Source: Bacteroidota bacterium
GTDB taxonomy: Bacteria; Bacteroidota; Bacteroidia; 2-12-FULL-35-15
NCBI GenBank assembly: GCA_029237775.1
Contig: JAQZBR010000001.1
Span: forward strand, 62,001 to 126,000
Length of the DNA stretch: 64,000 nucleotides
Reading direction: 5' to 3'
Shown: positions 13,901 to 54,752 of the stretch, one piece after another
Layout of the letters: every line of letters begins with the position of its first letter
How positions within the stretch are numbered: position 1 is the first letter of the stretch
Made by a program: the position numbers and the translations under genes
The notes under the pieces: generated by a model
Told to the model about the DNA's origin: nothing
What the model saw: the letters and a program-made list of their open reading frames with translations, nothing else
Databases searched by the model: none

Positions 13901-16900
13901 CTGTTACAGATGCGAACTCATGCTCTCAGACAATTTCAGTCACTGTAAATAACCTCGCAGGACCTGTTGCAACAGTATTCTCTTCCACAAATGTTTCGTG
14001 TAACGGACTTTGTGATGGAAATGCTACGGTAACGATCTCTGGAGGTACTGCGCCTTACACTTATGCATGGACACCTTCCGGAGGATCACTTCCTACAGCC
14101 ACCAATCTGTGTGCAGGAACTTATACGCTGAATGCGACAGATGTGAACGGATGTGCTGCATCAACATCGGTAACAATTACAGAACCTGCTGTGTTAGCTA
14201 CAACCTATACTTCAGTTAACCCTTCATGCTTTGGTGGATCTAACGGTTCAATCACATCTGCTACGACAGGTGGAACAACGCCATACACTTATCTATGGTC
14301 TCCGGGATCTACTACAACTAGCAATCTTACAGGATTATCGGCCGGAACATACATGCTTCAGGTAACTGATGAGAACGGCTGTTTAACTGTTACAAATATA
14401 ACACTGAACAATCCTCCGGCTCTTACAGCATCGACTACTACAACCAATGTTACATGTAACGGTTTATGTAATGGAACTGCAACAGTGAATGTTTTAAATG
14501 CTACAGGTCCGATCAACTACCTATGGACTGATGTTAATGTGCAAACTATCCCAACAGCTACTGCCCTTTGTGCGGGAACATATTCTGTAACTGCAACAGA
14601 TGCAAACGGTTGTATTGTAACAACAACAGCAACAATTACGACTCCGGCTTCTATCTCAGTTAACATCACAGCTTTGGGACATGTGTCCTGCTATGGTGCT
14701 TGTGACGGGTTTGCAACGGCAGCTGTAACGGGTGGAACTGCTCCTTTCAGCTACATGTGGGCTCCGAGCGGAACTGCAGGCTCATCGGTGAATAACCTTT
14801 GCGCTGCTAACTACACAGTAACAGTTACAGATGCTAACGGATGTACCGCATCAACAACAGTTCTGATCAATCAACCGAATCCGCTTGTTGCAAGTATCAC
14901 TAATACTGATGTAACATGCTATGGAGATTGTGATGCTCAGGCAACAGTTGTTTATACCGGTGGTACAGGTCCATACACATTCTTATGGAGCAATTTCCAG
15001 ACTACTCCGACTATTGATTCAGTATGCGCAGGCTTACTAAACGTTAATATTACCGATTCAAAAGGTTGTGTGGCGAGCAGTGCAGCCGTAGTTGAAGAGC
15101 CTACTATTTTAGCAGTTACAACAACAACGGTCAATTCGACCTGCGGTGTTGCAAATGGTACAGCGTGCGCTTCAATAACAGGAGGATCGCCACCATTCAT
15201 TTACTCATGGAATGATCCTGCAACGCAAGCAAACAGCTGCGCTACAGGATTGAATGCGGGAGTTTATACGATCTCTATCACTGACAGTCATAATTGCAGC
15301 GTTACCAATGTTGCGAATGTAAACGATGACAACGCTCCGATTGTAACCATTCCATCAAGCACGGATGTTACCTGCTTTGGTCTGGCAAACGGAAGTGCAC
15401 AGGGTAACATTACAGGTGGTGTGATTCCTTACACTATTGGATGGACTCCGGGCGGACAAACGAACACATTCGCCAATAACCTTTCAGGAGGTATCTATTC
15501 ACTTATAGTTACGGATTCAGTTGGCTGTACAGGATCTGCTTCAGTTACTATCAATGAACCAATGCAATTGTTGAGCGGAATTGTTTCAACGATCAACACT
15601 TCATGTAACTTAGGTTGCGATGGTTCAGCGACAGTGCTTGCGGGCGGAGGAACAGCGCCATATACATACTTATGGAATGATGTTAACACTCAAACAACGA
15701 CCACAGCAAACAACTTGTGCGCTCAGGCTTATACGGTAACGGTGACGGATGCAAACGGTTGTACCGCTTCCACTTCCACAACGGTTACTCAGCCTTCTGC
15801 AATTGCAGTAAACGTAGTTCAAAGTACTAATGTATCATGTAACGGAGGAAGTAACGGAAGCATCGATGTTGCTGTAACGGGTGGAAGTCCGGGATACACT
15901 TATGACTGGTTGCCTAATGTGGGATCAAGCTCATCAGTAACTAATCTTGCTGCGGGAACTTATACTTTAACTGTTACTGACGTAAGAGGATGTGCAAAGG
16001 TAATCACAGTTGTTATCTCAGAGCCTACCCCTGTTGTGTTGACACCGAACTCAAACTTCAGCACCTGCGGTAATTCAAATGGTAGTGCCGGAGTGAGTGT
16101 ACTGGGCGGAGTTAGCCCATACTCTTATGCATGGTCGCCAACACCGGGCTCAACTGCTATCATCACTAATATACCGGCAGGAGTTTACACTGTAACTGTT
16201 ACTGATAATAATGGTTGTATCTCTTCAGCAACTTCAACTGTTGCTGATTCAGCAGGACCTACAATACAGCAGCCGATTACTTTCACAAGACCTTCTTGTG
16301 CTGAATTATCGAATGGAACTGCGACAGTAGTTGCAACAGGCGGTCAGCCCCAGTATTCTTACTTGTGGAATACAACCCCTATTCAGACCACGCAAACTGC
16401 TTCAGCATTGCATGCCGGTCCGTACCAAGTAACTGTCACCGATCAAAATGGCTGCAGTGTTACAGGAACAGTGATTGTTACACAACCACAACCGTTGACG
16501 ATACCTCTTATTCCAATAGACACAATTTGTATTGGGCAGCTTACTCAAATTTATGGAAGTGCGCAAGGCGGAACACCGCCATATACATTCACATGGAATC
16601 CTTCGTCTGTAGGAACCGGACCAGGTCTGTTTAATGTAAGCCCTGTTTCACCAACAACCTATACTTTTACAGTCGTTGATGCTAACATGTGTGTGGCACA
16701 GCCGCAGGGTTTTGTGACAGTTCATGTTAATCCGCAGATCACTGTTACAGCAACAGATGTATCTGTTTGTGATGGAACTGCCGTAACAATATCTGCTACA
16801 GCAAATGGTGGTGCAGGTGCACCATACACATACACATGGAACAATGGAGCTGTTGGAGCGTCACAAACGGTAACTCCAACAGGTGCAACATCAATAGACT

Positions 16901-19446: not shown

Positions 19447-19480
19447 ATTGTTACGCAGAGACGCAGAGAGCGCAGAGTAC
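19447..19480 (+). repeat. cgcagag dispersed repeat
   Basis: Three close copies of the motif cgcagag (acgcagagacgcagagag region) start right after the stop codon of the T9SS cargo gene. The same motif follows murB at 31545-31584. It is an intergenic repeat family with no coding content. Confidence 0.6.
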
Positions 19481-21672: not shown

Positions 21673-21801
21673 TTAATAAAAAAGGGCGCATTTTTTTTGG
21701 TAAACTCAGCATTTTTTATAGCTAAATATAGGCGCAGAAATTGTGATGTAAAAAACGATTAATCATAATTTGTAACAGGGATTTTCTATGCTAAAAAGAT
21801 G

Positions 21802-22023
21802 TTATTCCGAGCGTAGCCGAATGGATCTTTTTGACAGTGTTAAAATTATTGCGCAGTACTACTTTGATATGTTATAACTCGAACTTATCCGGCAATGATA
21901 TGAGAATGTCACGGAAGTACGCAGATCACTAAGATATCATAGCGATATGAAATTGTTAAGTTATTTGACGATTACAAATAACTGCTTGAACGAATTAGAT
22001 CCATTCGGCTACACTCAGAATGA
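21802..22023. repeat. Inverted-repeat element (222 bp) with gtagccgaatggatct arms
   Basis: The 27-nt arms at 21802-21828 and 21997-22023 are inverted copies that match at 24 of 27 positions by eye. The outer part reads like the ATTC-GAGYGTAGCCGAA dispersed repeats of Bacteroidota. The 168 bp between the arms has no ORF. The element fills most of the 522-bp gap between gyrB and the beta-barrel gene and looks like a non-autonomous palindromic element. Confidence 0.65.
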
Positions 22024-22083
22024 CTATCACTCCGAATTAAGATTACACCTTTTCCTCAGAAACAGGACGATTGGTTATCGAAT

Positions 22084-31530: not shown

Positions 31531-31544
31531 CTAGGGAGTTCTTT

Positions 31545-31584
31545 TACCGCAGAGAACGCAGAGCTTTACGCAGAGTTCGCAGAG
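31545..31584 (+). repeat. cgcagag dispersed repeat
   Basis: Four copies of a cgcagag-like motif lie in 40 bp, starting 15 bp after the murB stop codon. This is the same family as at 19447-19480. Confidence 0.6.
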
Positions 31585-32193: not shown

Positions 32194-32539
32194 GTACTGA
32201 TAGCGAATAAAAAACGAATTACGAATCTGTGTTTGCGAATAACGAATTTAACAGATAGCGAATCTGTGAAATCCACGAATTATGAATCTTTACGAATATA
32301 CGAATCTGTGTGTGAGAAACGCTGTGTGAATGATTTGTATGTAAATTTTACGAAGCGAGGGCTAGGTCATCCTGAACTTGTTTCAGGATCCGCGCGATGA
32401 GAGAACCTAATGTTAAGTACATCTAACGCGATCCAAATTGGGTCTCATGATTCTTCTTCCAACCGTCTCCAAAATACCCATCATGAACTACAAACTACTA
32501 CCGTCTACGCACTACAAACTACGAACTACATACTAACCG
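32194..32539 (-). repeat. Composite leader repeat, copy A (before the DinB-like gene)
   Basis: No gene is visible in this 346-bp gap. Read on the minus strand toward the DinB-like ATG it holds, in order: actacaaact-type repeats (32484-32534), a ggagacgg box (around 32462-32470), gcgttagatgta (32418-32429), a hairpin with the core tcctgaacttgtttcagga (32366-32390) and a run of attcg/attcgt words (about 32200-32320). The same order occurs before holA and the EVE gene. Confidence 0.7.
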
Positions 32540-34270
32540 CTACCCACTAATCTGATCTAACTCACCTTTAACAAACTGAGCAAGTTCCTTTACATACTCC
32601 TGTGAAAAATTAAACTCTACACCTGCTGCTTTATAAATTTCCGGGATCGACTTAGTATAACCTAAGCGTAATGCTGCTTCATAACCGTCCAGCGCTTTCT
32701 CTGGATTCTGTTTATAATTTCTCCACACCGCAATAGCGCCAAGCTGTGCCATGCCGTATTCAATGTAATAAAAAGGTACTTCGAAAATATGAAGCTGGCT
32801 CTGCCATCCGCGTTTTCTGATCTCTTCCATCCCGCTCCAGTCAACTACGTTACTGCTGAACTCTCCAATGATCTTTGCCCATGTATCCATTCTGTCTGAG
32901 ATCGAGTGCTGCGGGTTTTCATACATCCAATGCTGGAATTTATCTACCGCACCAATCCACAATAATGATTTTAATGTCTGCTCCAGCTGTTCCTGCTTCG
33001 CTCTTCTCAATTCATCCTTATCATCATAAAACACATCCCAGTGTTCCATGGAAATTAATTCCATTGACATTGAAGCGAGCTCAGCAACTTCAGACGGTGT
33101 GCTTTTGAAATCAGTAATTTCAAGATCACGTGTCACGAATGAATGTATTGCATGTCCGCCTTCATGCACCATGGTGATCACATCACGCTGCGCACCTACA
33201 GAATTCATAAAAATAAATGGAACACCGATTTCATATAGTGGATAATTATATCCGCCCGGAGCTTTACCTTTACGCGACTCGAGGTCGAGATGCCCCATCG
33301 TTTTCATGATCTCAAGGTACTCACCATAAGAATGCCTTATCTTGTAAAAACACGCAATGCTCTTATCAATTAATTCCTGCCCGGTTTTTACTGGCATCAA
33401 TGCAGGTTTTCCATCCACATCAACATCCATATCCCATGGCTTCAATACATCAAGCTTCAGCTTGGCTTTTCTCTTCAAATTAATTCCCTCACTTATCGGA
33501 AGCAACTCTTTTGATATTGATTTATGAAAATCAAAACAATCCTGCACAGTGTAATCAAACCGTCCGAGCTCAGCGAACTTGTAATCACGGTAATTTTTAA
33601 AACCTGCGTTCACTGCAACCTGATGACGAAGACTTAACAATTCAGAAAACAAATTATTCAGTGTATCAACATCCTTTTCTTTACGCTCCTGGATCTTAAA
33701 GAAAATTTCTTCACGCACTTTCCGATCAGCTTCCTTTAAAATATTTGCGGCTTTTTGTAAAGTGATCTCCTGCCCTTTCCAGTTAACAGTCATTGCAGCA
33801 GCAATAGCACCGTACTTCTGAGAGTCAGTTGAGATCTTTGTATTTAAAGGAATATTCTCCTCACGATAGATCTCAAGCGCTTTCTTTACGCCACGCAAAT
33901 AAATATTGTACTCAGGCTTGTTCAGCTTTGAAACGAATTCACACTCAACAAGCTTTTTATTAAGATCATTATTATAAGGTGCGATATGCGGCTCGATCTC
34001 TGATACAAAATAGTTGAATGATTCTGTGATGTCTTTATCAGTCGTATCGCAGGTCATTTTAATATATCTCCAGGCAAGCTCTTCACTGATTACTGCTTCC
34101 AGCTCGCTCCTGTCTTTCAGCCACTTTTCAAGATCCTTAACGGATGAAATTTTCCTGTCCATCAGATCCTTAAAGAAAGGCATGATTGTTTCCCAGGTAT
34201 CTATGCTTAATTGCTGAGGCAGAAAATGGCGGACAGGCTTTTTGGGAATAACAATCTGATTTGTTTCCAT
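32540..34270 (-). CDS. M3-family oligoendopeptidase
   Basis: This is a cytoplasmic zinc metallopeptidase of the thimet/oligopeptidase-F family, 576 residues, with no signal peptide. The zinc motif HEGGH is at 369-373 and the third ligand is probably E397 in AELASMSME. The all-helical N-terminal half and YEIGVPFIFMN before the active site fit the PepF-like branch. It would cleave short peptides released by protein turnover. It is transcribed alone or with nothing obvious downstream. Confidence 0.88.
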   Translation of the reverse strand: METNQIVIPKKPVRHFLPQQLSIDTWETIMPFFKDLMDRKISSVKDLEKWLKDRSELEAVISEELAWRYIKMTCDTTDKDITESFNYFVSEIEPHIAPYNNDLNKKLVECEFVSKLNKPEYNIYLRGVKKALEIYREENIPLNTKISTDSQKYGAIAAAMTVNWKGQEITLQKAANILKEADRKVREEIFFKIQERKEKDVDTLNNLFSELLSLRHQVAVNAGFKNYRDYKFAELGRFDYTVQDCFDFHKSISKELLPISEGINLKRKAKLKLDVLKPWDMDVDVDGKPALMPVKTGQELIDKSIACFYKIRHSYGEYLEIMKTMGHLDLESRKGKAPGGYNYPLYEIGVPFIFMNSVGAQRDVITMVHEGGHAIHSFVTRDLEITDFKSTPSEVAELASMSMELISMEHWDVFYDDKDELRRAKQEQLEQTLKSLLWIGAVDKFQHWMYENPQHSISDRMDTWAKIIGEFSSNVVDWSGMEEIRKRGWQSQLHIFEVPFYYIEYGMAQLGAIAVWRNYKQNPEKALDGYEAALRLGYTKSIPEIYKAAGVEFNFSQEYVKELAQFVKGELDQISG

Positions 34271-34352
34271 TGAAGTAGAAATTAAATTCCGGGTGAAAGG
34301 CGAATAGGCCTTCGTCCTTTAAAGTATTAATTCGATCCGTAGCCGATCAAAT

Positions 34353-34387
34353 GAAAAAAAACCGGTGCTTATGCAGTTCCGGTTTTT
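34353..34387 (-). terminator. Terminator overlapping the DUF5606 stop codon
   Basis: On the minus strand AAAAACCGG pairs with CCGGTTTTT (34379-34387 with 34357-34365). The left arm encodes the last Lys-Thr-Gly codons and the TAA stop codon (34369-34371) lies in the loop. Confidence 0.8.
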
Positions 34388-34908
34388 CTTACGCCTTGTG
34401 TTTTAACCTTTGTTCCGGCAGTCTTCACCGGCTTGGCCATTGTATCTTTTGTCTTTGTCTTCACTGCCCCCTTTGCATCGGCTGCAGCTTTAACTTTCTT
34501 CTTTGACTCTTCTTCTGTTTCCTCTTTGGTCTCCAGCAATCCTTCTTTCTGAAGAATATTGTACCACATTAAAACCTTTTTAATATCCGAAGTGTAAACT
34601 CTTTCTTCATCATATTCTGCAAAAGCTTTTTTAAAATATGATCTTAATTCCGCGTCTGCAGACTTATGATCGATCGCTGCAGCTCCTTTTTCTTTGTCGA
34701 AGATCTTTTGAAACACTTCCTTCAAAGGAACATCATCACCTGTTGAATAGATGCTTACATCTTCCAGCGCACTAACTCTGTTTGTAGAATGTGCAGGTAT
34801 GCGTTTTTTATCCACCAATGATTCAACAATCAATCCGTTTTTCGATTGAGCAATCACTTTGTACAATCCACTCATTCCTGCAATTGAAATAATCCCGCTT
34901 AAATTCAT
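34369..34908 (-). CDS. DUF5606-type protein
   Basis: The 179-residue product has the start NLSGIISIAGMSGLYKVIAQ, then KNGLIVESLVDKKRIPA, a pattern I recognise as the DUF5606 family found across Bacteroidota. The first 70 residues look like a small beta-barrel of SH3-like type. Residues 90-120 are helical (ADAELRSYFKKAF, VYTSDIKKVLMWYNIL). The tail from about 125 is Lys/Ala/Thr-rich and disordered, and could bind nucleic acid, though that is only inference. No signal peptide is present. Function is unknown. The stop codon is in the loop of its own terminator. Confidence 0.8.
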   Translation of the reverse strand: MNLSGIISIAGMSGLYKVIAQSKNGLIVESLVDKKRIPAHSTNRVSALEDVSIYSTGDDVPLKEVFQKIFDKEKGAAAIDHKSADAELRSYFKKAFAEYDEERVYTSDIKKVLMWYNILQKEGLLETKEETEEESKKKVKAAADAKGAVKTKTKDTMAKPVKTAGTKVKTQGVRKTGTA

Positions 34909-34944
34909 ATCTATTATTTATTATTTTCTTAATTTATATTTACA

Positions 34945-34952
34945 CAAATGTA
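34945..34952 (-). promoter_or_regulatory. -7 promoter box of the DUF5606 gene
   Basis: On the minus strand this reads TACATTTG, an exact TAnnTTTG match, 36 bp before the start codon. No good TTG at the -33 distance was found. Confidence 0.45.
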
Positions 34953-34969
34953 AAAATTATTGCCTGATT

Positions 34970-37861
34970 TTACTTCGCGATCATTAATTTATAAGTGTAT
35001 TTTTTATTATTGATTCTCATATCATAAAAATAGATGCCATTCTCAAGGCCGGCAATATTTGTTACTATATTATGCTCTCCGGCCGACATCCTTTCTGAAA
35101 GAATATTTTTAACGGTTCTTCCCATAATATCATAAAGCTTCAGAGAAATCATGGCCGCTTCTGACAAATTAATAGCAATATTTGAGATTTCAGCTGCCGG
35201 GTTTGGATATACAACCCAGCTGTTCTCTGCGTCAGAACTTTCTTCAATACCGGTTGCCATGAGGCCATCATACATGATCTGAGCATTTCCGGCAGAAGTC
35301 TGGAGATCAGAAAGACTGTCCCCGGCAATAAGCGCGAAAGCCACTTTTATTGAATCTCCGCCAGCAATTACAAATGGTCCGGAACTGACAACATCACAAA
35401 TATCCACTCCTGTTCCACCCACTCCTGCATCTGAACGGTTTGTAGATAAGGCCGTGTACTTTTCGCTGACATCAAATCCTCCACCGTTAAGATCGATCCC
35501 TCCTGCTCCTCCTGCCACGTTATCCAATGCATAATGCCTGACAGGGGCGGTGTTTGTCAAAAGCTTTATTCCGGCATATTTTCCTGCCGCACCTGTATAA
35601 TAAGCATAACCCATTTTATTGGCCGCATCAAAAGACGACCGGTTAGAGCCGAATGTAGCAGCATCAATATCCCAGTCGGCAAAAATGCCTGCGTAAAGAT
35701 TGTTCAGATTTACCGTTCCGGTGTTCTTTATTATGTACTCAACTATTACATATTTGCGGTTCCCCGGAGTTGACCAGGCATATGCCTTATGGTGCACCCT
35801 AATTGGTAGCGCACCGGTAGCAGCCGGTGCATCGCTGAACGTGCCATCAACATCAAATTCAGATGTTACATCTGGCACAAGTCGCTGAGCCCTCACCACT
35901 GTTTGAAAATCAGCATCCGATGCTCCCGCAGTAACACCTCTCACCACATTGGAAACTTTTGAAGTGCTTGTCCCTACCATTAATCCGGCTTCGTACAGCA
36001 GCGTTCCAGCTCCCATGTAGTTGAATCCTAGCCCGCCCGACTGGCCATCAGCACGGTAACCGATCCGGCCAGTGCTTGTAACAGTGGTGCTTACATCATT
36101 AATATTAATGTTAACGTAATCCACATTTACATTGATTGTAAAATATTCGGTCTGATTGTATCCTGTTGCCGCATCAGCGTAAGTAAGGCGAAACTGTACT
36201 ACCGTATTCAAAGGCGCTGTCGGCTTTATTCTTACTGTAAACGGATCTGCATTATTATTAGCCGTAGCTAACGTACCCATTGCGCCAAGCGTTGTTGACC
36301 CATCAAGTATAGTTACACTGGATGATGTCCCTCCGATTGCATTTAAAGTAACAACCACATTGGATGCAGGTGCCAGGTAATTGATAAAATTTCCGCGGAT
36401 CTTCAGTGTATCATTCGGCAGATATGTTTCATCATTCCCATCAGTGTCGGTGCGGCTGGTAAGTACGACAGAAGGGGACGCTGTTTGTGTTAATGCTTTA
36501 TAAAGATTTACACGCCCTTCGCCCAATCGGTTAGCGTACGCAGTTGCATTAAGTGAATAGATATTATCGCAGGTAACCTTTAGCTGTTCACCGATCTGCA
36601 AAGCATTATATGAAGGGTAAAATGATTTTATGATGGCCGCTGCCCCGGCAGCACAAGGCGCAGCCATTGACGTTCCGCTCTGATACGTATATGTGTTTGT
36701 CGGGTAAGTCGCATAAATATTTTCTCCGGGTGCACACACATCAATGTTATATCCATAGTTAGTGCTACCAGCTGCAACATCACTGTTGTTGGTATTCGCA
36801 ACGCTTATCACATACTGAAGTGACGCAGGATAAAAATCTGTGAGAACACCATCGTTACCTGATGCAGCAATAACAAGCGCATTGTTATTGATAGTCGCGT
36901 ATGTTATGATATCCTGTGCAAATTGTCCGCCTGCAGGTCCGCCCCATGAGCAGTTGATTATAGCACATCCGTGTGAAGCAGCATATTGAATCCCTTCGTA
37001 GGCAGCAACAAGTGCACCGGAGGCGTCAGCGATCTTCACCGGTAAAAATTTACATTTGAAACCAACTCCGGCAATTCCAAGCCCGTTATCTACTGATGCG
37101 GCAGCAATACCCGAAACATGCACTCCATGCTGACTTCCCTGCCAGGCAGGATTATTATCATCCATCCCGACATCCCATCCGGAAAAATTATCCACGAATC
37201 CGTCTCCATCTTCATCGCCTCCGCCAATCGGATCAGCATAGTTATGCTTAATGTTATTTTTAAGATCGTTATGTGTAGGTTCAACACCTGTGTCTGTAAT
37301 TCCTATCACCACATTTGTATCTCCGCGCGCAGTGGTCGTATTGACTCCCCAGGCAGCAGGAGCCTGAATTTTGTTGATAGCGTATTGCATTCCGATACTC
37401 GGATCATTAGGAGTGTAGCAGGTACGGGGAATATAATGTGGCTCAGCATATTCAAAAATGCCCAGATTATTGAATGTATTGATGACCTTCACAAGATCAG
37501 CATCCACAGAATATTTAAATTCATAAATGAGTGAAATGTCGGCCAAATGTAGGCCCTGATCATTCACCTTACGCTCTGGTTCTTTTTCCTTTGGGAATTT
37601 CCTTTTAAGCCCCGCTCCACCGATAGTTGTGTAGAGCTGAATAAATGATGGGTTGTTTATGGTTGTATTACTACAGATCTGTCTGTAAGAATCTTTCACT
37701 TTCAGAATAACTGTTTTTTCGAGATAATCACCAGGCCTTACCGCAGCCGGCATGCTAAAATGAGCAGTATTAGAAACAGTCGGTGATTTTTGCGCAAAAA
37801 GTATTCCTGAAGCACAAGCGAAGAAAAGCGCTGCGCTTAATTTTTTCGATAAATGTAGCAT
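34970..37861 (-). CDS. Secreted subtilisin-family (S8) protease with type A T9SS tail
   Basis: The 963-residue product has a signal peptide (1-23, ending LFA-Q), a propeptide-like region, and a subtilase domain with catalytic Asp190 (GITDTGVEPTHNDL), His245 (QHGVHVSGI), oxyanion Asn336 (AASGND) and Ser398 (SGTSMAAP). A Ca-loop-like DEDGDGFVDN stretch lies between Asp and His. A beta-sandwich-rich region of about 480 residues follows. The C-terminal 75 residues (WVVYPNPAAE, LKLYDIMGRTV, GLENGIYFYDMRI, KLMIAK) form a type A T9SS sorting domain. It should be secreted to the cell surface or medium to degrade protein. All catalytic residues are intact. Confidence 0.93.
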   Translation of the reverse strand: MLHLSKKLSAALFFACASGILFAQKSPTVSNTAHFSMPAAVRPGDYLEKTVILKVKDSYRQICSNTTINNPSFIQLYTTIGGAGLKRKFPKEKEPERKVNDQGLHLADISLIYEFKYSVDADLVKVINTFNNLGIFEYAEPHYIPRTCYTPNDPSIGMQYAINKIQAPAAWGVNTTTARGDTNVVIGITDTGVEPTHNDLKNNIKHNYADPIGGGDEDGDGFVDNFSGWDVGMDDNNPAWQGSQHGVHVSGIAAASVDNGLGIAGVGFKCKFLPVKIADASGALVAAYEGIQYAASHGCAIINCSWGGPAGGQFAQDIITYATINNNALVIAASGNDGVLTDFYPASLQYVISVANTNNSDVAAGSTNYGYNIDVCAPGENIYATYPTNTYTYQSGTSMAAPCAAGAAAIIKSFYPSYNALQIGEQLKVTCDNIYSLNATAYANRLGEGRVNLYKALTQTASPSVVLTSRTDTDGNDETYLPNDTLKIRGNFINYLAPASNVVVTLNAIGGTSSSVTILDGSTTLGAMGTLATANNNADPFTVRIKPTAPLNTVVQFRLTYADAATGYNQTEYFTINVNVDYVNININDVSTTVTSTGRIGYRADGQSGGLGFNYMGAGTLLYEAGLMVGTSTSKVSNVVRGVTAGASDADFQTVVRAQRLVPDVTSEFDVDGTFSDAPAATGALPIRVHHKAYAWSTPGNRKYVIVEYIIKNTGTVNLNNLYAGIFADWDIDAATFGSNRSSFDAANKMGYAYYTGAAGKYAGIKLLTNTAPVRHYALDNVAGGAGGIDLNGGGFDVSEKYTALSTNRSDAGVGGTGVDICDVVSSGPFVIAGGDSIKVAFALIAGDSLSDLQTSAGNAQIMYDGLMATGIEESSDAENSWVVYPNPAAEISNIAINLSEAAMISLKLYDIMGRTVKNILSERMSAGEHNIVTNIAGLENGIYFYDMRINNKKYTYKLMIAK

Positions 37862-37883
37862 TAGGGATTGTTATTAATTATCA

Positions 37884-37914
37884 GCAAGATAGACATGTTT
37901 TATGAAAAAACAAA
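37884..37914 (-). promoter_or_regulatory. Promoter of the S8 protease gene
   Basis: On the minus strand TTTG, 19 bp and TATCTTGC lie within the 56-bp gap after the HsdR-N gene. Spacing fits the Bacteroidota consensus; the -7 box departs from TAnnTTTG at its last two bases. Confidence 0.4.
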
Positions 37915-37917
37915 GCT

Positions 37918-38361
37918 TCATTCGAAATCCGGAACCATTTTAAGAAAGTGATATGAATTGTCGTTATAATCCATCTCGCAGCAAAAATGATCAAGGCCAT
38001 TTGTAACGACCAGATAGCTCACTTTAAAGGACATGTTATACACTGCGATCTGGTGAAAAGTATCCTGACTGATCTTCACTCCGGGCGCCTTGCACTCGAT
38101 CATGAGAAAGGGGCTTCCTTGTTTATTGTATATCAGAACATCGGCCCTCTTCTGAAGCTGATTGTATTTCAATCCGATCTCAACGCCAATCAGTGAGGCA
38201 GGGTATTTTTTGTCTTCGATCAAAAACCGGATGAAATTCTGCCGCACCCACTCTTCAGGAGTAAGCACAACGAATTTTTTCCTGATATCATCAAAGATGA
38301 ACGCCAGTTCATTCTCTTTTTTTAAGCGAAATTGGTATGTCGGGAGATTAAGTTCCTGCAT
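37918..38361 (-). CDS. HsdR N-terminal-like PD-(D/E)XK domain protein (orphan)
   Basis: The 147-residue product (start at ATG 38361, MQELNLPTYQ) matches the type I restriction enzyme R-protein N-terminal domain (HSDR_N_2 type). It shows Glu37 (EEWVRQNF), Asp74 (KRADVLIYN) and the E-x-K pair in MIECKAP (E89, K91), the core of a restriction-nuclease fold. No helicase, HsdM or HsdS gene is near, so it is not part of a complete restriction system here. Such stand-alone proteins are widespread in Bacteroidota with unknown function. A longer start at 38394 adds 11 residues. Its promoter region is shared divergently with the AMP nucleosidase gene. Confidence 0.82.
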   Translation of the reverse strand: MQELNLPTYQFRLKKENELAFIFDDIRKKFVVLTPEEWVRQNFIRFLIEDKKYPASLIGVEIGLKYNQLQKRADVLIYNKQGSPFLMIECKAPGVKISQDTFHQIAVYNMSFKVSYLVVTNGLDHFCCEMDYNDNSYHFLKMVPDFE

Positions 38362-38450
38362 TGCCTTGCAAAGAACCGTTTTTATAAAAAACACGGATTA
38401 TCTATTTATGAATAATTCTCAACATGTTTTTATTCCGCGCTCTTAATTCG

Positions 38451-38458
38451 TATTTTCG
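38451..38458 (+). promoter_or_regulatory. Possible -7 box of the AMP nucleosidase gene
   Basis: TATTTTCG differs from TAnnTTTG at one base and lies 27 bp before the start codon, in the divergent 124-bp region with the HsdR-N gene. Confidence 0.3.
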
Positions 38459-38485
38459 CGTGAGAATTTAATTTTAATTCAAACT

Positions 38486-39256
38486 ATGAAAAGCAAAGAA
38501 GAGATCGTAGCCAATTGGTTACCAAGATATACAGGTACAGAATTAAAAGATTTTGGAAAATATATTATCCTGACAAATTTCAACAAATATGTAAGAAAAT
38601 TTGCTGAATGGAATGGTGTTGAAGTGGTAGGTGTTGATATGCCTATGCCTAATGCAACTGCGAACGGTATTACCATCATTAACTTTGGAATGGGGAGCGC
38701 AAATGCAGCAACGATCATGGATCTGTTAAGTGCTATTCAACCTGAAGCAGCTTTATTTCTTGGAAAATGTGGCGGATTAAAAAAGAAGAATAATCTCGGT
38801 GATCTTATCCTGCCTATCGCTGCTATCCGTGGAGAAGGTACTTCAGACGATTATTTCCCTTCTGAAGTCCCAGCATTACCGGCCTTCAGTCTTCAGAAAG
38901 CAATTTCAACAACAATACGTAATCATAATAAAGATTACTGGACAGGAACTGTATATACTACAAACAGGAGGGTTTGGGAGCATGATGAAGAGTTCAAAGA
39001 CTATTTGCGTTCAATTCGTGCTATGGGTATTGATATGGAGACTGCTACAATTTTCAGTACAGGTTTTTATAACGAGATCCCGACAGGAGCATTACTTCTT
39101 GTGAGTGATCAACCAATGATCTCTACTGGAGTAAAGACAACCGAAAGCGATAAAAAGATCACACTTAACTTCGTTGACGATCATTTGAAAATTGGCATTG
39201 ATGCTTTGAATGAGCTTAAGAATAACGGATTAACGGTGAAGCATTTAAGGTTTTAA
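38486..39256 (+). CDS. amn: AMP nucleosidase
   Basis: The 256-residue product is a phosphorylase-fold nucleosidase (PNP/UDP family) that splits AMP into adenine and ribose 5-phosphate. The layout IINFGMGSANAATIMDLL, ALFLGKCGGLKKKNNLGDLI and the nucleoside-site segment MGIDMETATIF matches the short AMP nucleosidases typical of Bacteroidota, which lack the extra N-terminal domain of the E. coli enzyme. It acts in the cytoplasm in purine salvage and AMP-level control. I use amn for the enzyme activity; short-form genes are not always given that name. Confidence 0.85.
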   Translation: MKSKEEIVANWLPRYTGTELKDFGKYIILTNFNKYVRKFAEWNGVEVVGVDMPMPNATANGITIINFGMGSANAATIMDLLSAIQPEAALFLGKCGGLKKKNNLGDLILPIAAIRGEGTSDDYFPSEVPALPAFSLQKAISTTIRNHNKDYWTGTVYTTNRRVWEHDEEFKDYLRSIRAMGIDMETATIFSTGFYNEIPTGALLLVSDQPMISTGVKTTESDKKITLNFVDDHLKIGIDALNELKNNGLTVKHLRF

Positions 39257-39443
39257 TTAGTCGGGGAACGGAGTCGGGAGACGGGTAGAAATAAACTCGG
39301 AATTAAATTTAACAGAAGTAATTCTTGCGCGCAGATCCTGAAACAAGTTCAGGATGACCAACACACCAATTCGTTATTCGTTCCATAATTCGTTATTCGT
39401 AGATACAGAGATTCGTAAATTCGCATAGATTAGTATTCGTACC
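39257..39443 (+). repeat. Composite leader repeat, copy B (before holA)
   Basis: In order toward the holA ATG: a gagacggg box (about 39271-39285), the hairpin gatcctgaaacaagttcagg (starting 39334, stem to 39358) and an attcgt-rich run (39366-39441). It matches copies A and C in order and orientation but lacks a clear gcgttagatgta box. Confidence 0.65.
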
Positions 39444-40475
39444 ATGGATTACAATTCAATAATGTCAGACCTTAAAAAGAAAACCTACCGACCGGTATAT
39501 TTTCTGATGGGTGATGAACCTTATTTTATTGACATGATCTCGGACTACATCGAGCAGAATGTACTTGATGAAAGTGAAAAAGAATTTAACCAGACTGTCC
39601 TTTACGGCCGTGATGTAAGTACCGCTGAAATCATTGGCGCTGCAAAGCGTTTCCCGATGATGAGCGAATATCAGGTTGTGATCATTAAGGAAGCGCAGGA
39701 TATTAAAGATCTTGTTAAAAAAGAAAAAGAGGACAAGAAGGAAAAAGTAAAGTCCCCTTTTGAAGCTTATCTTGAAAACCCTCTCCCTTCAACTATACTT
39801 GTCTTCTGTTACAAATACAAAAGCATTGATAAACGTACGGCACTTGCAAAGCTGATTGAGAAAAAAGCGGTGCTGTTCGAATCCAAAAAGTTGTATGATA
39901 ACCAGGTTGCCGACTGGATCAACAATTATCTTAAGACAAAAGGCTTTACAATTAACCAGCGTGCTGCCGGATTGCTTGGTGAATACCTGGGAACAGGATT
40001 AAGCAAGATCACCAACGAGCTGGATAAACTCATTATTAATCTTCCGCCAAAATCCGAGATCACTCAGGAACATATCCAGACAAACATTGGGATCAGCAAA
40101 GATTATAATGTATTTGAGCTGCAAACTTCGATTGGAAAAAAAGAAGTTTTGAAAGTAAACCGCATCATCAATTATTTTGCAGCCAATCCAAAAGACAATC
40201 CGATGGTGATGACAGTTTCTTCTCTGTATGGATATTTCTGCAAGGTCCTCACCTACCATTTTGTTCCCGATAAAAAGATGGCCGCTTCAGCAATGGGTGT
40301 CAATCCATATTTTGTAAAAGATTATGAAATTGCCGCCCGGAATTTCAGTGTGGGGAAATTAAAGTCCATTTTCAGCTATTTAAGGGATTATGACCTCAAA
40401 TCGAAGGGGGTCGATAACGGCTCAGCCACTGAAGGCGAACTACTTAAAGAGATGATTTTCAAGATTTTGCACTAA
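39444..40475 (+). CDS. holA: DNA polymerase III subunit delta
   Basis: HolA opens the sliding clamp as part of the clamp-loader complex. The 343-residue product has the typical start PVYFLMGDEPYFIDMISDYIE, read here in parts: the PVYFLMGDEP loop and the helical follow-on. VVIIKEAQDIKD and a degenerate AAA+ core follow, and the C-terminal collar helices include GYFCKVLTYHF. Length is normal for the family. The gene appears single and is preceded immediately by a composite repeat leader. Confidence 0.92.
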   Translation: MDYNSIMSDLKKKTYRPVYFLMGDEPYFIDMISDYIEQNVLDESEKEFNQTVLYGRDVSTAEIIGAAKRFPMMSEYQVVIIKEAQDIKDLVKKEKEDKKEKVKSPFEAYLENPLPSTILVFCYKYKSIDKRTALAKLIEKKAVLFESKKLYDNQVADWINNYLKTKGFTINQRAAGLLGEYLGTGLSKITNELDKLIINLPPKSEITQEHIQTNIGISKDYNVFELQTSIGKKEVLKVNRIINYFAANPKDNPMVMTVSSLYGYFCKVLTYHFVPDKKMAASAMGVNPYFVKDYEIAARNFSVGKLKSIFSYLRDYDLKSKGVDNGSATEGELLKEMIFKILH

Positions 40476-40555
40476 AGCATTCTTACCCTTTTCTTTTCCG
40501 GAAAATATTTTTCAAATCTGCTCCTGAATGCCGCACCAAACGGCTATTCCTTTCG

Positions 40556-40563
40556 TAAATTTG
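40556..40563 (+). promoter_or_regulatory. -7 promoter box of the CHAT-like gene
   Basis: TAAATTTG is an exact match to TAnnTTTG, 97 bp before the start codon, which implies a leader of about 90 nt. No clear TTG is seen at the -33 distance. Confidence 0.4.
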
Positions 40564-40660
40564 CTGTATAGGAATTGGAATTACGAAAAGCCAGTTCCTT
40601 TTAAAAATGAATTATACAATGGCATATTCCTATAGCCTGTAAAGAAGTGTTTGATTATAT

Positions 40661-41332
40661 ATGAAAAAGGGGATTTATTGTCTGGAAGGCTTGTGGGATT
40701 ATAATTTAAAAGATAAATCTACTGTACAGCCTATATTGGAATTGTTGGAGAAGAGTGACATCTGTAAACACATGTACCATTCCTGCGCGACAAAAGATGA
40801 GCTTGAATTTTTTCTTAAAAAATGGAAACAAAAAATAATCAACAAACGATTTCCCATTCTTTATCTCGCCTTTCATGGCAGTCGCGGTAACATTCTGATA
40901 ACGCACAATAAACCATACTCGCTTACCGAACTCGGAAATATTCTTGAAGGAGCATGCGATGGCAAGGTCATCTTCTTCGCTTCGTGCGAAACATTAAACA
41001 CTGACGAAAGAAAGATTCAGTCATTTCTTAAAAAAACAAACGCCATTGCTGTTGTTGGCTACAAACAGGAAGTTGAATGGATGCTCGCCACTGCTTTCGA
41101 GCTGTTAGTGCTCGATGCATTTCAGCAGGACAGGTTTGACAGTCGCGGCATACTGAATATCGAAGAAAAAATAAAGTCAGAATACGGTAAATTACATCAC
41201 AAGCTTTATTTCCGGATGGTAATAAACAAGCACGTTCATTTTCCAAGGAAGCGTGAAATAAAAACTATTTCCGAGTTGAGCACGAAAAGGGTGCGGAAGC
41301 GGAAAGAAACAGAGAAGAGATTGAAGAATTAA
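40661..41332 (+). CDS. CHAT/caspase-like domain protein (DUF6642-like)
   Basis: The 223-residue product shows a His-Cys dyad in the pattern of CHAT and caspase-like proteases: LYLAFHGSRGNI (H72 followed by Gly) and VIFFASCETL (C109). The YSLTELGNIL helix between them is like the CHAT core. The start KKGIYCLEGLWDYNLKD is one I associate with the DUF6642 family of such small proteins. A basic C-terminal tail (from about 190, KRVRKRKETEKRL) is not part of the fold. No repeat, sensor or effector domain is fused, and neighbours (holA, EVE protein) do not show an obvious target. It may be a small peptidase or a regulator; activity is inference. Confidence 0.7.
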   Translation: MKKGIYCLEGLWDYNLKDKSTVQPILELLEKSDICKHMYHSCATKDELEFFLKKWKQKIINKRFPILYLAFHGSRGNILITHNKPYSLTELGNILEGACDGKVIFFASCETLNTDERKIQSFLKKTNAIAVVGYKQEVEWMLATAFELLVLDAFQQDRFDSRGILNIEEKIKSEYGKLHHKLYFRMVINKHVHFPRKREIKTISELSTKRVRKRKETEKRLKN

Positions 41333-41639
41333 AAGTTGGTAGTTCGCAGTTAATAGTTCGGAGTTTGTAGTTCGGAGACGGTTAAAAGGAACAATATTGA
41401 GCAGAAACCAAAAGAGGATTGCGTTAGATGTATTTTAAACATGAGGAACCCTCTGTCATCCCGCAGACCCTGAAATATTCCGATATCTATTGGATCAGGA
41501 TGACTAACTGGACAATTCGTAGTTTAAAACACAGATATAACAAGCAGTTATTTACACACAGATTGGTAAATCCGTAAAAATTCGCAATTCGTCTTTACAC
41601 ATATTAGTATATTCGTTTCTTTATTCGTTATTCGTACTC
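41333..41639 (+). repeat. Composite leader repeat, copy C (before the EVE gene)
   Basis: No gene is visible in this 307-bp gap. In order toward the EVE ATG it has: tagttcgg/agtttgtag words (41339-41375), ggagacggtt (41374-41383), gcgttagatgta (41421-41432), a region bounded by gtcatcc and ggatgac (41455-41504) and attcgt-rich words (41515-41636). The order repeats that of copies A and B. Confidence 0.7.
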
Positions 41640-51834: not shown

Positions 51835-52758
51835 TTATTTTTTTAACGATTTTAGCCATTTGACAAGCGTGGGTAGCTTGTTCTTTTTCACCTGTAAATA
51901 TACGCAATCTTTTGCTCCAAAATTCTTATAAAAGCGGGCCACCGATGCCACGGAGGATCCGCCAAAATCCAATATGTATCCGCTCTCTGCATGCTTTCTT
52001 AAAAATGTATCAAAGATCAAATACATATGCCCATTGTTCTTCCCTTCATCCGTAAGTCCACTCTTTAAAAAAACGTACCTGTTACGATATCTCATAAAAA
52101 ACGCTGCAGCACTCAACTCTCCCTTTTCACTATAGATGCCAAAGCTTTCAGAAAACCCTTGTTCAGTGCAGTTGTTCATCAGGGAAACTAATTTTTTATA
52201 GTCTTCTGTGTCAAAAACCTCCAGCTCATTTCCTTTTGTTTTTTTAAACAAATCCACAACTTCCGAACCTGTTATTCCCTCCTTGATTATATGTGCAGAC
52301 TTAACCGCTTTCTTAATACTTCTTTTACCATTGTCTTTAAACCCTGAATGCAGCTTTTCGTATGGAAGGCTGAGATCCAGCTCCTGAAACACCTTCTCTT
52401 TCAGCTCGAAGCCGGAGCCGTTAATTGATTGACTTTCGTGAAAACAAAATTCCATGTACCGAAACTTTTCAGGAATGTTGTTCAAGAAAGAGGTAGTAAC
52501 TTCTGCTGTAACCCGACTTTTAGAATAAACACCAAAGTACCTTGTAAAAAAGGGCTGATACAAATAATTCAGTCCGAACTTTGCCGCTGGAGCGATGGGA
52601 AACACTGCGTCATAATCATTAAACACCAGAGCTTCCCATGGTCCTGCAACTGTATCAAGATACCAGGAACAGACAAATATGTTACCATGTTCACTTGCAT
52701 CGATACACTTGTCCCACTTGGACCTATCGATCCTGTTATGTTCTACGTATCTGATCAT
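51835..52758 (-). CDS. FemAB/GNAT-like acyltransferase
   Basis: The 307-residue product has a FemAB/CelD-like double GNAT layout: N-terminal SWYLDTVAGPWEALVFNDY, KGNELEVFDTEDYKKLV, AAFFMRYRNRYVFLKSG, and the end motif YILDFGGSSVASVARFYKNFGA. Members transfer aminoacyl or acyl groups in cell-wall and surface-polysaccharide synthesis. Its ATG overlaps the stop of the deacetylase gene upstream by 4 bp (ATGA), a sign of coupled translation. A role in modifying the same glycan is plausible but not shown. Confidence 0.75.
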   Translation of the reverse strand: MIRYVEHNRIDRSKWDKCIDASEHGNIFVCSWYLDTVAGPWEALVFNDYDAVFPIAPAAKFGLNYLYQPFFTRYFGVYSKSRVTAEVTTSFLNNIPEKFRYMEFCFHESQSINGSGFELKEKVFQELDLSLPYEKLHSGFKDNGKRSIKKAVKSAHIIKEGITGSEVVDLFKKTKGNELEVFDTEDYKKLVSLMNNCTEQGFSESFGIYSEKGELSAAAFFMRYRNRYVFLKSGLTDEGKNNGHMYLIFDTFLRKHAESGYILDFGGSSVASVARFYKNFGAKDCVYLQVKKNKLPTLVKWLKSLKK

Positions 52759-53744
52759 TTCAGAAATTCTTTTTCAAAAGTGCTGAAGCTGTTTTCTGAT
52801 TTATTTGCAGCAATAAACTTTTCAATCATCACGAGCGAATACCTCGAAAGTGCTTTCGGATGGCCGATTACCACCATATGTTGCCTGTTCGCCTTTTTCA
52901 ATCTTTTGAGAGATCTGTTAAGAAGATGCGAATTGTAACCGTCAACTGAAACCGGATTATTTGTAAACCGTGTTAATAATTTTTTTCTGTATCCCGGAGC
53001 AGCCATTGCACGGCCATCTCCCAAGGGCTTGTGCATGTACGGATCTTTTCTGCCAAGCAAAAACAATTTCCAGAAAAACAAGGGAGAATTTTTTACAGAA
53101 CTTATCGGAACTTCGGTAAATGTTCCGGCCGGATCTTCTTTCACAACATCCGTTTCAAACTTGTAAATATCCTTATCGGGAGCATTTCTGAAATCGTATG
53201 CATATTGCGGAGATGAAAAGAAACCATTCCTGAAGACACTGCTGTCAAGTGTTATATTTTCTTTCTTAAACGCGCTGTATAGCTTGCTGAAAGGCTGCAA
53301 ACACCAGCCACCTGCACGAAACGCGAAGATTTTCTTCCCCGTGATATCTGAAATCACCTTTTTATATCGCTTCACGATATCCAATATATCATCATCAGAA
53401 AAATCGGCAAGCTTATATCTGTTTACATTTATAATCCATTTTTCTCCATTGTAAAAACTATCTTCCCAGTGAGGATGAATATGCAGCTGAATATCGTGCC
53501 CTTTCTCACTAAGCTCCTTTACCTGATCTGTGATTAATTTATAGTCTTTCTCAAGCGCAGGATATTTTATTCTGTACTCTGCAAGCTTCAAAATAAACCC
53601 GCAATCCACAAAAAAGACAAAGGTCACATTATGCTTTTCTCCGATCCTTATCAATTCAGAGGTTGGATAAATGATACACTTTTCCACCGTACCATGGTTT
53701 TCACCAAAGTAGATCTCATAGTCAAGTGTAATGTAGATCTTCAT
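52755..53744 (-). CDS. Polysaccharide deacetylase-like protein (NodB-type)
   Basis: The 329-residue product has the carbohydrate-esterase-4 pattern: Asp8 in ITLDYE and the metal-binding HDIQLHIHPHW (H83, H88, H90), with FRAGGWCLQPFSK following. It would remove acetyl groups from amino sugars in a surface or wall glycan. There is no signal peptide, so it probably acts in the cytoplasm on a precursor. It overlaps the FemAB-like gene by 4 bp, and a hairpin repeat lies in its 5' region at 53783-53807. Confidence 0.8.
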   Translation of the reverse strand: MKIYITLDYEIYFGENHGTVEKCIIYPTSELIRIGEKHNVTFVFFVDCGFILKLAEYRIKYPALEKDYKLITDQVKELSEKGHDIQLHIHPHWEDSFYNGEKWIINVNRYKLADFSDDDILDIVKRYKKVISDITGKKIFAFRAGGWCLQPFSKLYSAFKKENITLDSSVFRNGFFSSPQYAYDFRNAPDKDIYKFETDVVKEDPAGTFTEVPISSVKNSPLFFWKLFLLGRKDPYMHKPLGDGRAMAAPGYRKKLLTRFTNNPVSVDGYNSHLLNRSLKRLKKANRQHMVVIGHPKALSRYSLVMIEKFIAANKSENSFSTFEKEFLK

Positions 53745-53782: not shown

Positions 53783-53807
53783 GTCATCCTGAACTTGTTT
53801 CAGGATC
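53783..53807 (-). repeat. Lone hairpin repeat with core tcctgaacttgtttcagga
   Basis: The hairpin shared by the composite leaders occurs here alone, 39 bp before the deacetylase ATG, in the same orientation toward the downstream gene as in copies A and B. Confidence 0.7.
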
Positions 53808-53822: not shown

Positions 53823-54752
53823 TTATTCCTGCTTATGATGTTTTTTAAGACTATGACCTTTATCTCCAAACGGTGTATACATCGTGACTCCCTTTTCATT
53901 GTAATTACGAATCATTACTTCAAGCATTTTGTTTGCATCAATCAGCATGCTTTTTGCTTCCCCAATTATTCCATTCACTAGCACGCCCTCCTTCTCAAAC
54001 ATCGGCTTTAAAGCATCGCAATTGCGTTTCACAGAATACTCCGGATCGTGAACCTTCGTTTTCATAACCGAAACATTTCCCTTCGCATCCTTCATTTTTA
54101 CTTCAAAAATTTTTTCGTCATAGACGGGAAACTTAAAATCAACCGCGTCTTCCAGGGTATGTAAGTTTGTGCCTGCACCATTCAGTGTAGTGCCAAGCAT
54201 AAGAATCTTTCCATTCTTTTCACCTAACTTTCTGAAAGGTGAATTTTCATTATAAGGAGTTAATTGTCCGAAATGTGTATTCGTAAAATATTCTGCAAGC
54301 GGTCCTTTCGCTGCGACACAATCCGTTGGATGAAAGCTACGGAATACACCATCCATCTTTCTGAAGTATTCAGTCACGCTTCCCATTTGTGATGGGGTAT
54401 TTACAATATCAAAAATCGAATTTTCTTGCAGATGATCTTTACTTTTACCTTTAGCAGGAAATGTTGGAAACAACAATGTACCCTCTTCGCCAATCACTCT
54501 AAACAACGCATCAATAACGGTTTTTGGCCCGCCTTTAACAAAGCCTATTTTACTCAGACTGCAATGCACCAGAAGAGAATCGCCTCTTTTAATTCCGATC
54601 TCTTTCAAGTCAGCAACAAGATCATCAAGTGTTAATCCTTCATTGCTCATCTGTTTAGATTGCAAATATTTTCTTCTCCGCGATTTTTTGAGCGACTTCA
54701 GCCACTCAAGTAAAAACTGAGGAGAATATTTAAGGAGCAACTGCTTAAGCAT
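53823..54752 (-). CDS. AAC(3)-family N-acetyltransferase
   Basis: The 309-residue product has the Antibiotic_NAT (AAC(3)) pattern: GDSLLVHCSLSKIGFVKGG, LLFPTFP, the active-site region RSFHPTDCVAAKGP and LMLGTTLNGAGTNLHTLED with the His-Glu pair. AAC(3) enzymes acetylate the 3-amino group of aminoglycosides, but chromosomal members beside polysaccharide genes more likely act on amino sugars or other natural acceptors. Its neighbours are two deacetylase-like proteins and a UDP-GlcNAc epimerase. Antibiotic resistance cannot be inferred from this alone. Confidence 0.8.
   Translation of the reverse strand: MLKQLLLKYSPQFLLEWLKSLKKSRRRKYLQSKQMSNEGLTLDDLVADLKEIGIKRGDSLLVHCSLSKIGFVKGGPKTVIDALFRVIGEEGTLLFPTFPAKGKSKDHLQENSIFDIVNTPSQMGSVTEYFRKMDGVFRSFHPTDCVAAKGPLAEYFTNTHFGQLTPYNENSPFRKLGEKNGKILMLGTTLNGAGTNLHTLEDAVDFKFPVYDEKIFEVKMKDAKGNVSVMKTKVHDPEYSVKRNCDALKPMFEKEGVLVNGIIGEAKSMLIDANKMLEVMIRNYNEKGVTMYTPFGDKGHSLKKHHKQE

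What the first reader, a model, noticed from the sequence alone, without database searches (positions are those of the whole stretch)
32194..41639. A composite repeat forms the immediate leader of three genes in the same orientation
Before the DinB-like gene (32194-32539), holA (39257-39443) and the EVE gene (41333-41639) the same series of blocks occurs in the same order: actacaaact/agtttgtag words (A, C), ggagacgg, gcgttagatgta (A, C), a hairpin with tcctgaa...ttcagga, attcgt runs, then ATG within a few bases of the last word. The copies lie on both strands but always point toward the start codon, and are diverged, so they are not recent. A lone hairpin occurs before the deacetylase gene (53783-53807). 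The elements may be mobile units that insert upstream of genes, or shared regulatory leaders.
Basis: partly seen in the sequence, partly recalled or inferred. Interest (0 to 1): 0.7.

Follow-up and report, generated by a model that had tools for sequence, protein, structure and literature searches.

The report
Stacked intergenic repeats with nuclease-linked hairpins
The shared 'leader' is not one element but several kinds of intergenic repeat piled up between genes, and its hairpin belongs to a family of tiny palindromes whose copying enzyme was reported missing; here and in distant bacteria matching hairpins flank a small GIY-YIG DNA-cutting enzyme, the best candidate so far for what moves them.

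Summary
In detail: three intergenic regions carry heptamer words, a hairpin and ATTCGT runs in the same order. They are not one mobile unit and not a start-codon leader. (1) ATTCGT arrays (B) read into the nearest gene edge, stop codons as well as starts (39 of 45, p=5e-7; 24 of 27 in relatives). TAGTTYG/GGAGACGG arrays (A) read away from stop codons. H hairpins show no such bias. (2) At the orthologous DinB, holA and EVE junctions, relatives either have almost bare 0-40 bp junctions or keep A/B while the hairpins in the middle differ. The stack is lineage-specific accretion. (3) The hairpin is a GTC-tagged REP of the CGTC superfamily, for which no dedicated transposase was known (PMC3733652). 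Inverted copies of it flank a 104-aa GIY-YIG nuclease gene in this genome. Across 59 genomes 45 of 70 single-domain GIY-YIG genes have terminal inverted repeats (36 with a GTC tag), against 11 of 257 control genes; 12 of 14 distant plasmid relatives (mostly Proteobacteria) also have them. Hairpin sequence follows protein subfamily. None of 30 Y1-transposase loci had GTC-tagged ends. I propose that GIY-YIG units are the mobility partners of CGTC REPs: inferred, not shown. What the arrays do is open.

The parts
32463..32535 (-). A array before DinB: TAGTTYG heptamers directly after the stop of the M3 peptidase gene (32540-34270, -), ending in GGAGACGGTT
32418..32429 (-). K word GCGTTAGATGTA (only two exact copies in the genome)
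32365..32394 (-). H: GTC-tagged REP hairpin, perfect copy; absent from the orthologous junction of relatives G009 and G028, which hold other GTC-type hairpins there
32200..32316 (-). B array: ATTCGTN heptamers reading into the DinB start codon
39257..39286 (+). A-type heptamers (GGAGTCGGGAGACGGG) after the stop of the phosphorylase-superfamily gene (38486-39256)
39331..39358 (+). H: GTC-tagged REP hairpin before holA; also present at the orthologous site in L130, as a remnant in L129
39369..39440 (+). B array reading into the holA start codon
41334..41381 (+). A array after the stop of the DUF6642 gene (40661-41332), ending GGAGACGG
41421..41432 (+). K word, second exact copy
41462..41504 (+). 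H: REP hairpin with a second small palindrome (CCGATATCTATTGG) in its loop
41514..41635 (+). B array reading into the EVE-gene start codon
53783..53809 (-). lone H hairpin between the deacetylase-like gene (52755-53744, -) and the N-acetyltransferase-like gene (53823-54752, -)

Best explanation
The series is accretion at gene junctions by two independent kinds of intergenic repeat. First, heptamer arrays with fixed polarity relative to gene edges (A reads outward from stop codons; B reads inward to starts and, reversed, to stops) fill junctions that were originally 0-40 bp. Second, GTC-tagged palindromes (CGTC-type REPs) land in that non-coding space in either orientation. The REPs are the terminal repeats, and their solo or dimer derivatives, of small GIY-YIG nuclease genes. 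By the most likely mechanism the nuclease recognises its own hairpin end and cleaves at or near the GTC tag or at the target, and host repair copies the hairpin, or hairpin-gene-hairpin, into new sites. Shown: anatomy, polarity statistics, presence/absence at orthologous junctions, and association and co-variation of hairpin and nuclease. Inferred: cleavage, copying, and any effect on expression.
For: Polarity: B nearest edge on its 3' side 39 of 45 (p=5e-7), median 11 bp; A on its 5' side 20 of 23, of which 17 at stops; H 23 of 41. Relatives: B 24 of 27. Orthologous junctions differ: M3-DinB is 6-40 bp and bare in at least 10 genus members, while G009 and G028 share A and B but hold other GTC-type hairpins; PNP-holA; EVE. 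REP-nuclease link: inverted H pair 327 bp apart around a 104-aa GIY-YIG ORF; 45 of 70 GIY-YIG loci with terminal inverted repeats at score >=12.5 against 1% of random sites and 11 of 257 control genes (Fisher 7e-27); 15 of 20 in a further batch; 36 of 45 hold GTCA/GTCG, against 0 of 13 Y1-transposase TIRs; Mantel rho 0.49, 0 of 2000 permutations; 12 of 14 plasmid relatives from Alpha-, Beta- and Gammaproteobacteria, Cyanobacteria and Bacteroidota, with 0-1 of about 580 random sites per replicon reaching 16.
Against: No transposition event, target duplication or nuclease activity was observed. 25 of the first 70 GIY-YIG genes have no detectable ends, and only 6 of 15 TIRs in the second batch hold GTC in the expected orientation; some carry terminator-like palindromes. 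GIY-YIG genes could merely accumulate where REPs are, although the co-variation with subfamily argues against that. DinB and EVE leaders share a weak similarity beyond the words, so part of A+K may have been copied as one piece. How the arrays arise is unexplained.
Confidence: 0.68

Rival explanations
1. The whole A-K-H-B series is one composite mobile element (a MITE) that inserts upstream of genes with a fixed orientation.
For: Same order in three places; weak similarity of the DinB and EVE leaders beyond the words.
Against: Most genome copies of A, B and H occur without the others. In orthologous junctions the arrays stay while the hairpins differ. H is orientation-random while A and B are not. 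No common ends or target duplication seen.
Confidence: 0.07
2. Shared regulatory 5' leader (RNA element or protein-binding array) conserved for control of these genes.
For: B arrays lie a few to 30 bp before many start codons; MacGregor 2015 proposed translational regulation for TAACTGA heptamers in such positions (PMC4679880).
Against: 15 of 39 edge-facing B arrays face stops; junctions bare in most relatives; no Rfam hit; folding no better than shuffles; unrelated downstream genes.
Confidence: 0.12
3. GIY-YIG genes only hitch-hike: REPs are moved by another enzyme and the nuclease gene is cargo or sits by chance in REP-rich gaps.
For: REPs can cluster; one Y1 transposase gene is also in this genome; some GIY-YIG genes lack ends.
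Against: No GTC-tagged ends among 13 Y1 TIRs; hairpin type tracks the GIY-YIG subfamily, with different types in one genome each on its own nuclease (G018, G010, G017); random sites on three proteobacterial plasmids almost never show such ends.
Confidence: 0.25
4. Hairpins are transcription terminators and the arrays are neutral slippage products; nothing is mobile.
For: H sits in gaps, often near stops; arrays are tandem heptamers.
Against: H has no T-run, is dispersed in about 38 near-identical copies, forms only tag-outward dimers, and bounds a gene unit.
Confidence: 0.06

Closest known systems
CGTC-tagged REPs (Di Nocera et al. 2013, PMC3733652; includes Neisseria dRS3, Rickettsia RPE-4/6)
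   Same: Stem ATCCTGAA of 8 bp, loop CTTGT of 5, AT first in the stem, GTC tag at one end, tag-outward (HH) dimers only, intergenic
   Different: Tag here is mostly GGTC; tail C(T/C)G rather than CCA; here and elsewhere the repeats bound a GIY-YIG gene, whereas the paper reports no associated transposase
RAYT / REPtron and REPIN systems (Y1 HUH transposase with GTAG REPs)
   Same: Small enzyme gene flanked by inverted REPs, with many solo and dimer REPs elsewhere
   Different: Enzyme is a GIY-YIG nuclease, not Y1; tag GTC, not GTAG
TAACTGA heptamer direct repeats (MacGregor 2015, PMC4679880)
   Same: Heptamer arrays in gaps, forward just before starts and at least once reversed just after a stop; lineage-specific at orthologous gaps; in Bacteroidetes
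   Different: Different heptamers (ATTCGTN, TAGTTYG); polarity at both kinds of edge measured here
Single-domain GIY-YIG nucleases (PF01541; superfamily survey PMC1564403)
   Same: Same domain; the survey noted the family's ties to selfish elements
   Different: The survey text has no mention of palindromes; these are not homing endonucleases in introns

Membership tests
CGTC REP superfamily (block H) | GTC tag at one end (CGTC, TGTC or CCTC) | tested here: met
   GTC in 38 of 41 copies, preceding base mostly G (25) rather than C
CGTC REP superfamily (block H) | stem 8-9 bp beginning A-T, loop 4-5 | tested here: met
   ATCCTGAA-CTTGT-TTCAGGAT in nearly all copies
CGTC REP superfamily (block H) | dimers mostly HH, TT rare | tested here: met
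   the closely spaced inverted pairs all have tags outside
CGTC REP superfamily (block H) | 3-nt tail fitting CCA | tested here: not met
   tail is CTG or CCG; the paper says most tails, not all, fit CCA, so H is filed as CGTC-like
RAYT/REPtron | Y1 HUH transposase flanked by its REPs | tested here: not met
   enzyme is PF01541; 0 of 13 Y1 TIRs hold GTC
TAACTGA heptamer repeats | sequence TAACTGA in tandem | tested here: not met
   words are ATTCGTN and TAGTTYG; these words are absent from the paper
TAACTGA-like heptamer arrays in general | intergenic heptamer arrays placed at gene edges | tested here: met
Structured RNA leader / riboswitch | known family or fold better than shuffles | tested here: not met
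   no Rfam hit but a tRNA; z +1.3, +1.3, +0.1
MITE (whole series) | same boundaries and order in most copies | tested here: not met
   blocks mostly occur alone
GIY-YIG mobile unit | nuclease-dependent movement of its ends | not testable with these tools
   needs an experiment

The most novel reading that the evidence does not exclude
Single-domain GIY-YIG nucleases are the dedicated mobility enzymes of the CGTC REP superfamily in several phyla, forming a second REP system that parallels RAYT/GTAG REPs with an unrelated nuclease; the stacked leaders are one of its visible products.
Probability: 0.55. Interest if true: 0.85.

Novelty: new variant of a known kind. Interest (0 to 1): 0.68.

Why it matters
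CGTC REPs are found in at least five phyla, and the paper that defined them stated that no dedicated transposase was known. A small, testable nuclease whose subfamilies match the hairpin types would fill that gap and explain repeats such as dRS3 and the 'GTCATCC...' palindromes seen in many genomes. It would also show that REP spread evolved with two unrelated nucleases. The edge polarity of heptamer arrays, at starts and stops alike, is a clean and unexplained regularity that warns against reading such words as start-codon leaders.

Tried and rejected
One composite mobile unit: rejected. RAYT as the mover of H: one Y1 gene in the genome (C5:278584-278928), but no GTC-tagged ends at any of the 30 Y1 loci tested in relatives. 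Shared RNA fold: rejected. K word as a genome-wide family: only two exact copies. A strict palindrome test for GTC hairpins was too stringent for Bacteroidota arms (12 of 90 both sides against 1 of 516 random sites), so the terminal-inverted-repeat score is the main measure. Literature searches joining GIY-YIG with REP, CGTC or dRS3 gave no paper; RepRanger 2025 mentions no nuclease. Only open-licence papers were searchable.
Full report
What was checked. The three regions were read directly and every named word was located with shuffle controls. The words are real and exceed chance for the hairpin, GGAGACGG, TAGTTTGTAGT and ATTCGT runs; GCGTTAGATGTA at up to 2 mismatches is barely above chance in the window (8 found, 4.1 expected), but has two exact copies there and no other exact copy in the 4.08-Mb genome. 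The window lies in an unnamed Bacteroidetes genome in 12 contigs; the closest holA protein found is 90% identical, in MAG RYN_274. Each series fills the entire gap between the stop codon of one gene and the start codon of the next gene on the same strand.

The arrays. In about 0.95 Mb of the genome, with approximate gene calls, B (ATTCGTWATTCGT, one mismatch allowed) gave 46 intergenic and 5 intragenic arrays although about 85% of the bases were called coding. The nearest gene edge lies on the 3' side of the word in 39 of 45 (p=5e-7), at a median of 11 bp; 24 of these edges are starts and 15 are stops. A (TAGTTYG) is the mirror image: 20 of 23 have the nearest edge on the 5' side, 17 of them stops. 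The hairpin H has no preference (23 of 41). The B rule repeats in other genomes (24 of 27), and B words occur in 49 of 59 genomes searched, 14 of 24 genera. The stretches were partly chosen because they hold words, which does not bias orientation but does bias abundance. GGAGACGG is the inner end of A; the recurring form is TAGTTCGTAGACGGTTAACC.

History of the three junctions. M3 peptidase-DinB: in at least ten genus members the gap is 6-40 bp without repeats; G009 and G028 have A at the stop and B at the start, as here, but different GTC-type hairpins in between. PNP-holA: relatives L136, L139 and L143 have 0-3 bp; L129 has an A-type array, a hairpin remnant and B; L130 has H. EVE: L129 has A, two other hairpins and B; L131 and L135 have reversed B after the stop and another hairpin in the middle. 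The layout therefore repeats because each ingredient has its own placement rule, not because one unit was copied. A weak 97-nt similarity between the DinB and EVE leaders (72%, E=7e-7) leaves room for partial copying.

The hairpin. H is GTC-ATCCTGAA-CTTGT-TTCAGGAT-C(T/C)G, with 38 exact palindromes of this class in the genome against none for the pattern read backwards. Closely spaced inverted pairs always have tags outside. This fits CGTC REPs as defined in PMC3733652, which reports that they lack a dedicated transposase.

The nuclease. Two H pairs 327 bp apart at C8:133057-134285 enclose a 104-aa GIY-YIG ORF (PF01541, E=7e-15) and a decayed second copy; the hairpin encodes the protein's C-terminus. 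At the junction of the second copy G028 and G003 carry such a unit, G009 has a solo hairpin, and G035 and G010 have the two genes abutting with nothing between. For 70 single-domain GIY-YIG loci in this genome and its relatives, flanks were aligned to each other in inverted orientation: 45 reached a score that 1% of random sites reach; 11 of 257 control genes in relatives did. In 36 of the 45 the arm holds GTCA/GTCG; of 13 Y1-transposase loci with inverted ends none does. A further batch taken from lower-scoring hits gave 15 of 20, with GTC in the expected orientation in 6 and terminator-like palindromes in 4. Protein identity and hairpin similarity co-vary (rho 0.49, no permutation of 2000 reached it), and several genomes with more than one nuclease subfamily show a different hairpin on each. 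That test does not correct for phylogeny.

Generality. tblastn with the nuclease in plasmids found 33 records. Of 14 diverse loci, 12 have inverted ends above shuffles and above the 12.5 cut, for example CGTCATCCTCGGGCTTGACCCGAGGAT in S. meliloti and CGTCGCCCCGTGCTTGACACGGGGC in Novosphingobium, both groups listed with CGTC REPs in PMC3733652. In Azospirillum the unit sits between sufB and sufC. Random sites on three of these replicons: 0, 0 and 1 of about 580 reached a score of 16.

Interpretation. The association, its sequence specificity and its breadth are shown. That the nuclease moves the REP is inferred by analogy with RAYT/REP, an analogy of anatomy rather than of enzyme. For the arrays, placement is shown and cause is not; the closest precedent is the TAACTGA heptamers (PMC4679880), which also stand forward before starts and, in one case, reversed after a stop.

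Limits.

Noticed in passing
window 21801-21828 and 21997-22024: Second inverted pair of GTC-type palindromes (GTTATTCCGAGCGTAGCCGAATGGATCT / AGATCCATTCGGCTACACTCAGAATGAC), 168 bp apart, a different REP class.
   Followed up: no
window 41462-41504: A second small palindrome (CCGATATCTATTGG, like the CCCGATAGCTATCGGG words seen in L130 and at C8:56912) sits inside the loop of the EVE-leader hairpin: nested palindromes.
   Followed up: partly
L120:8057-8371 and L120:8930-9290: GIY-YIG gene unit with H ends, intact, and a second copy with an internal stop, on either side of a 160-aa gene; relative G009 has only one H at the junction where G000 has the second copy.
   Followed up: yes
L414, L424, L426, L430, L334 (relatives): A GIY-YIG subset flanked on both sides by terminator-like palindromes (AAAGCCCCAACAGTCGTTGGGGCTTT) instead of GTC hairpins.
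   Followed up: no
window 19453-19477 and 31543-31584; C5:3815-3829: Other tandem words, ACGCAGAG type, next to gene ends; further words (CCCTAAT, CTTAGTGCC) in other gaps of the genome.
   Followed up: no
window 4903-17772 and 20-4054: Very large ORFs (4289 and 1344 aa) built of repeats of about 225-234 bases.
   Followed up: no
L129 EVE leader, L131, L135, L340: CCCCTCTCGAGAGGGGCTAGGGGTGTGTT palindrome recurs in the same gaps of several relatives, another dispersed hairpin family.
   Followed up: no
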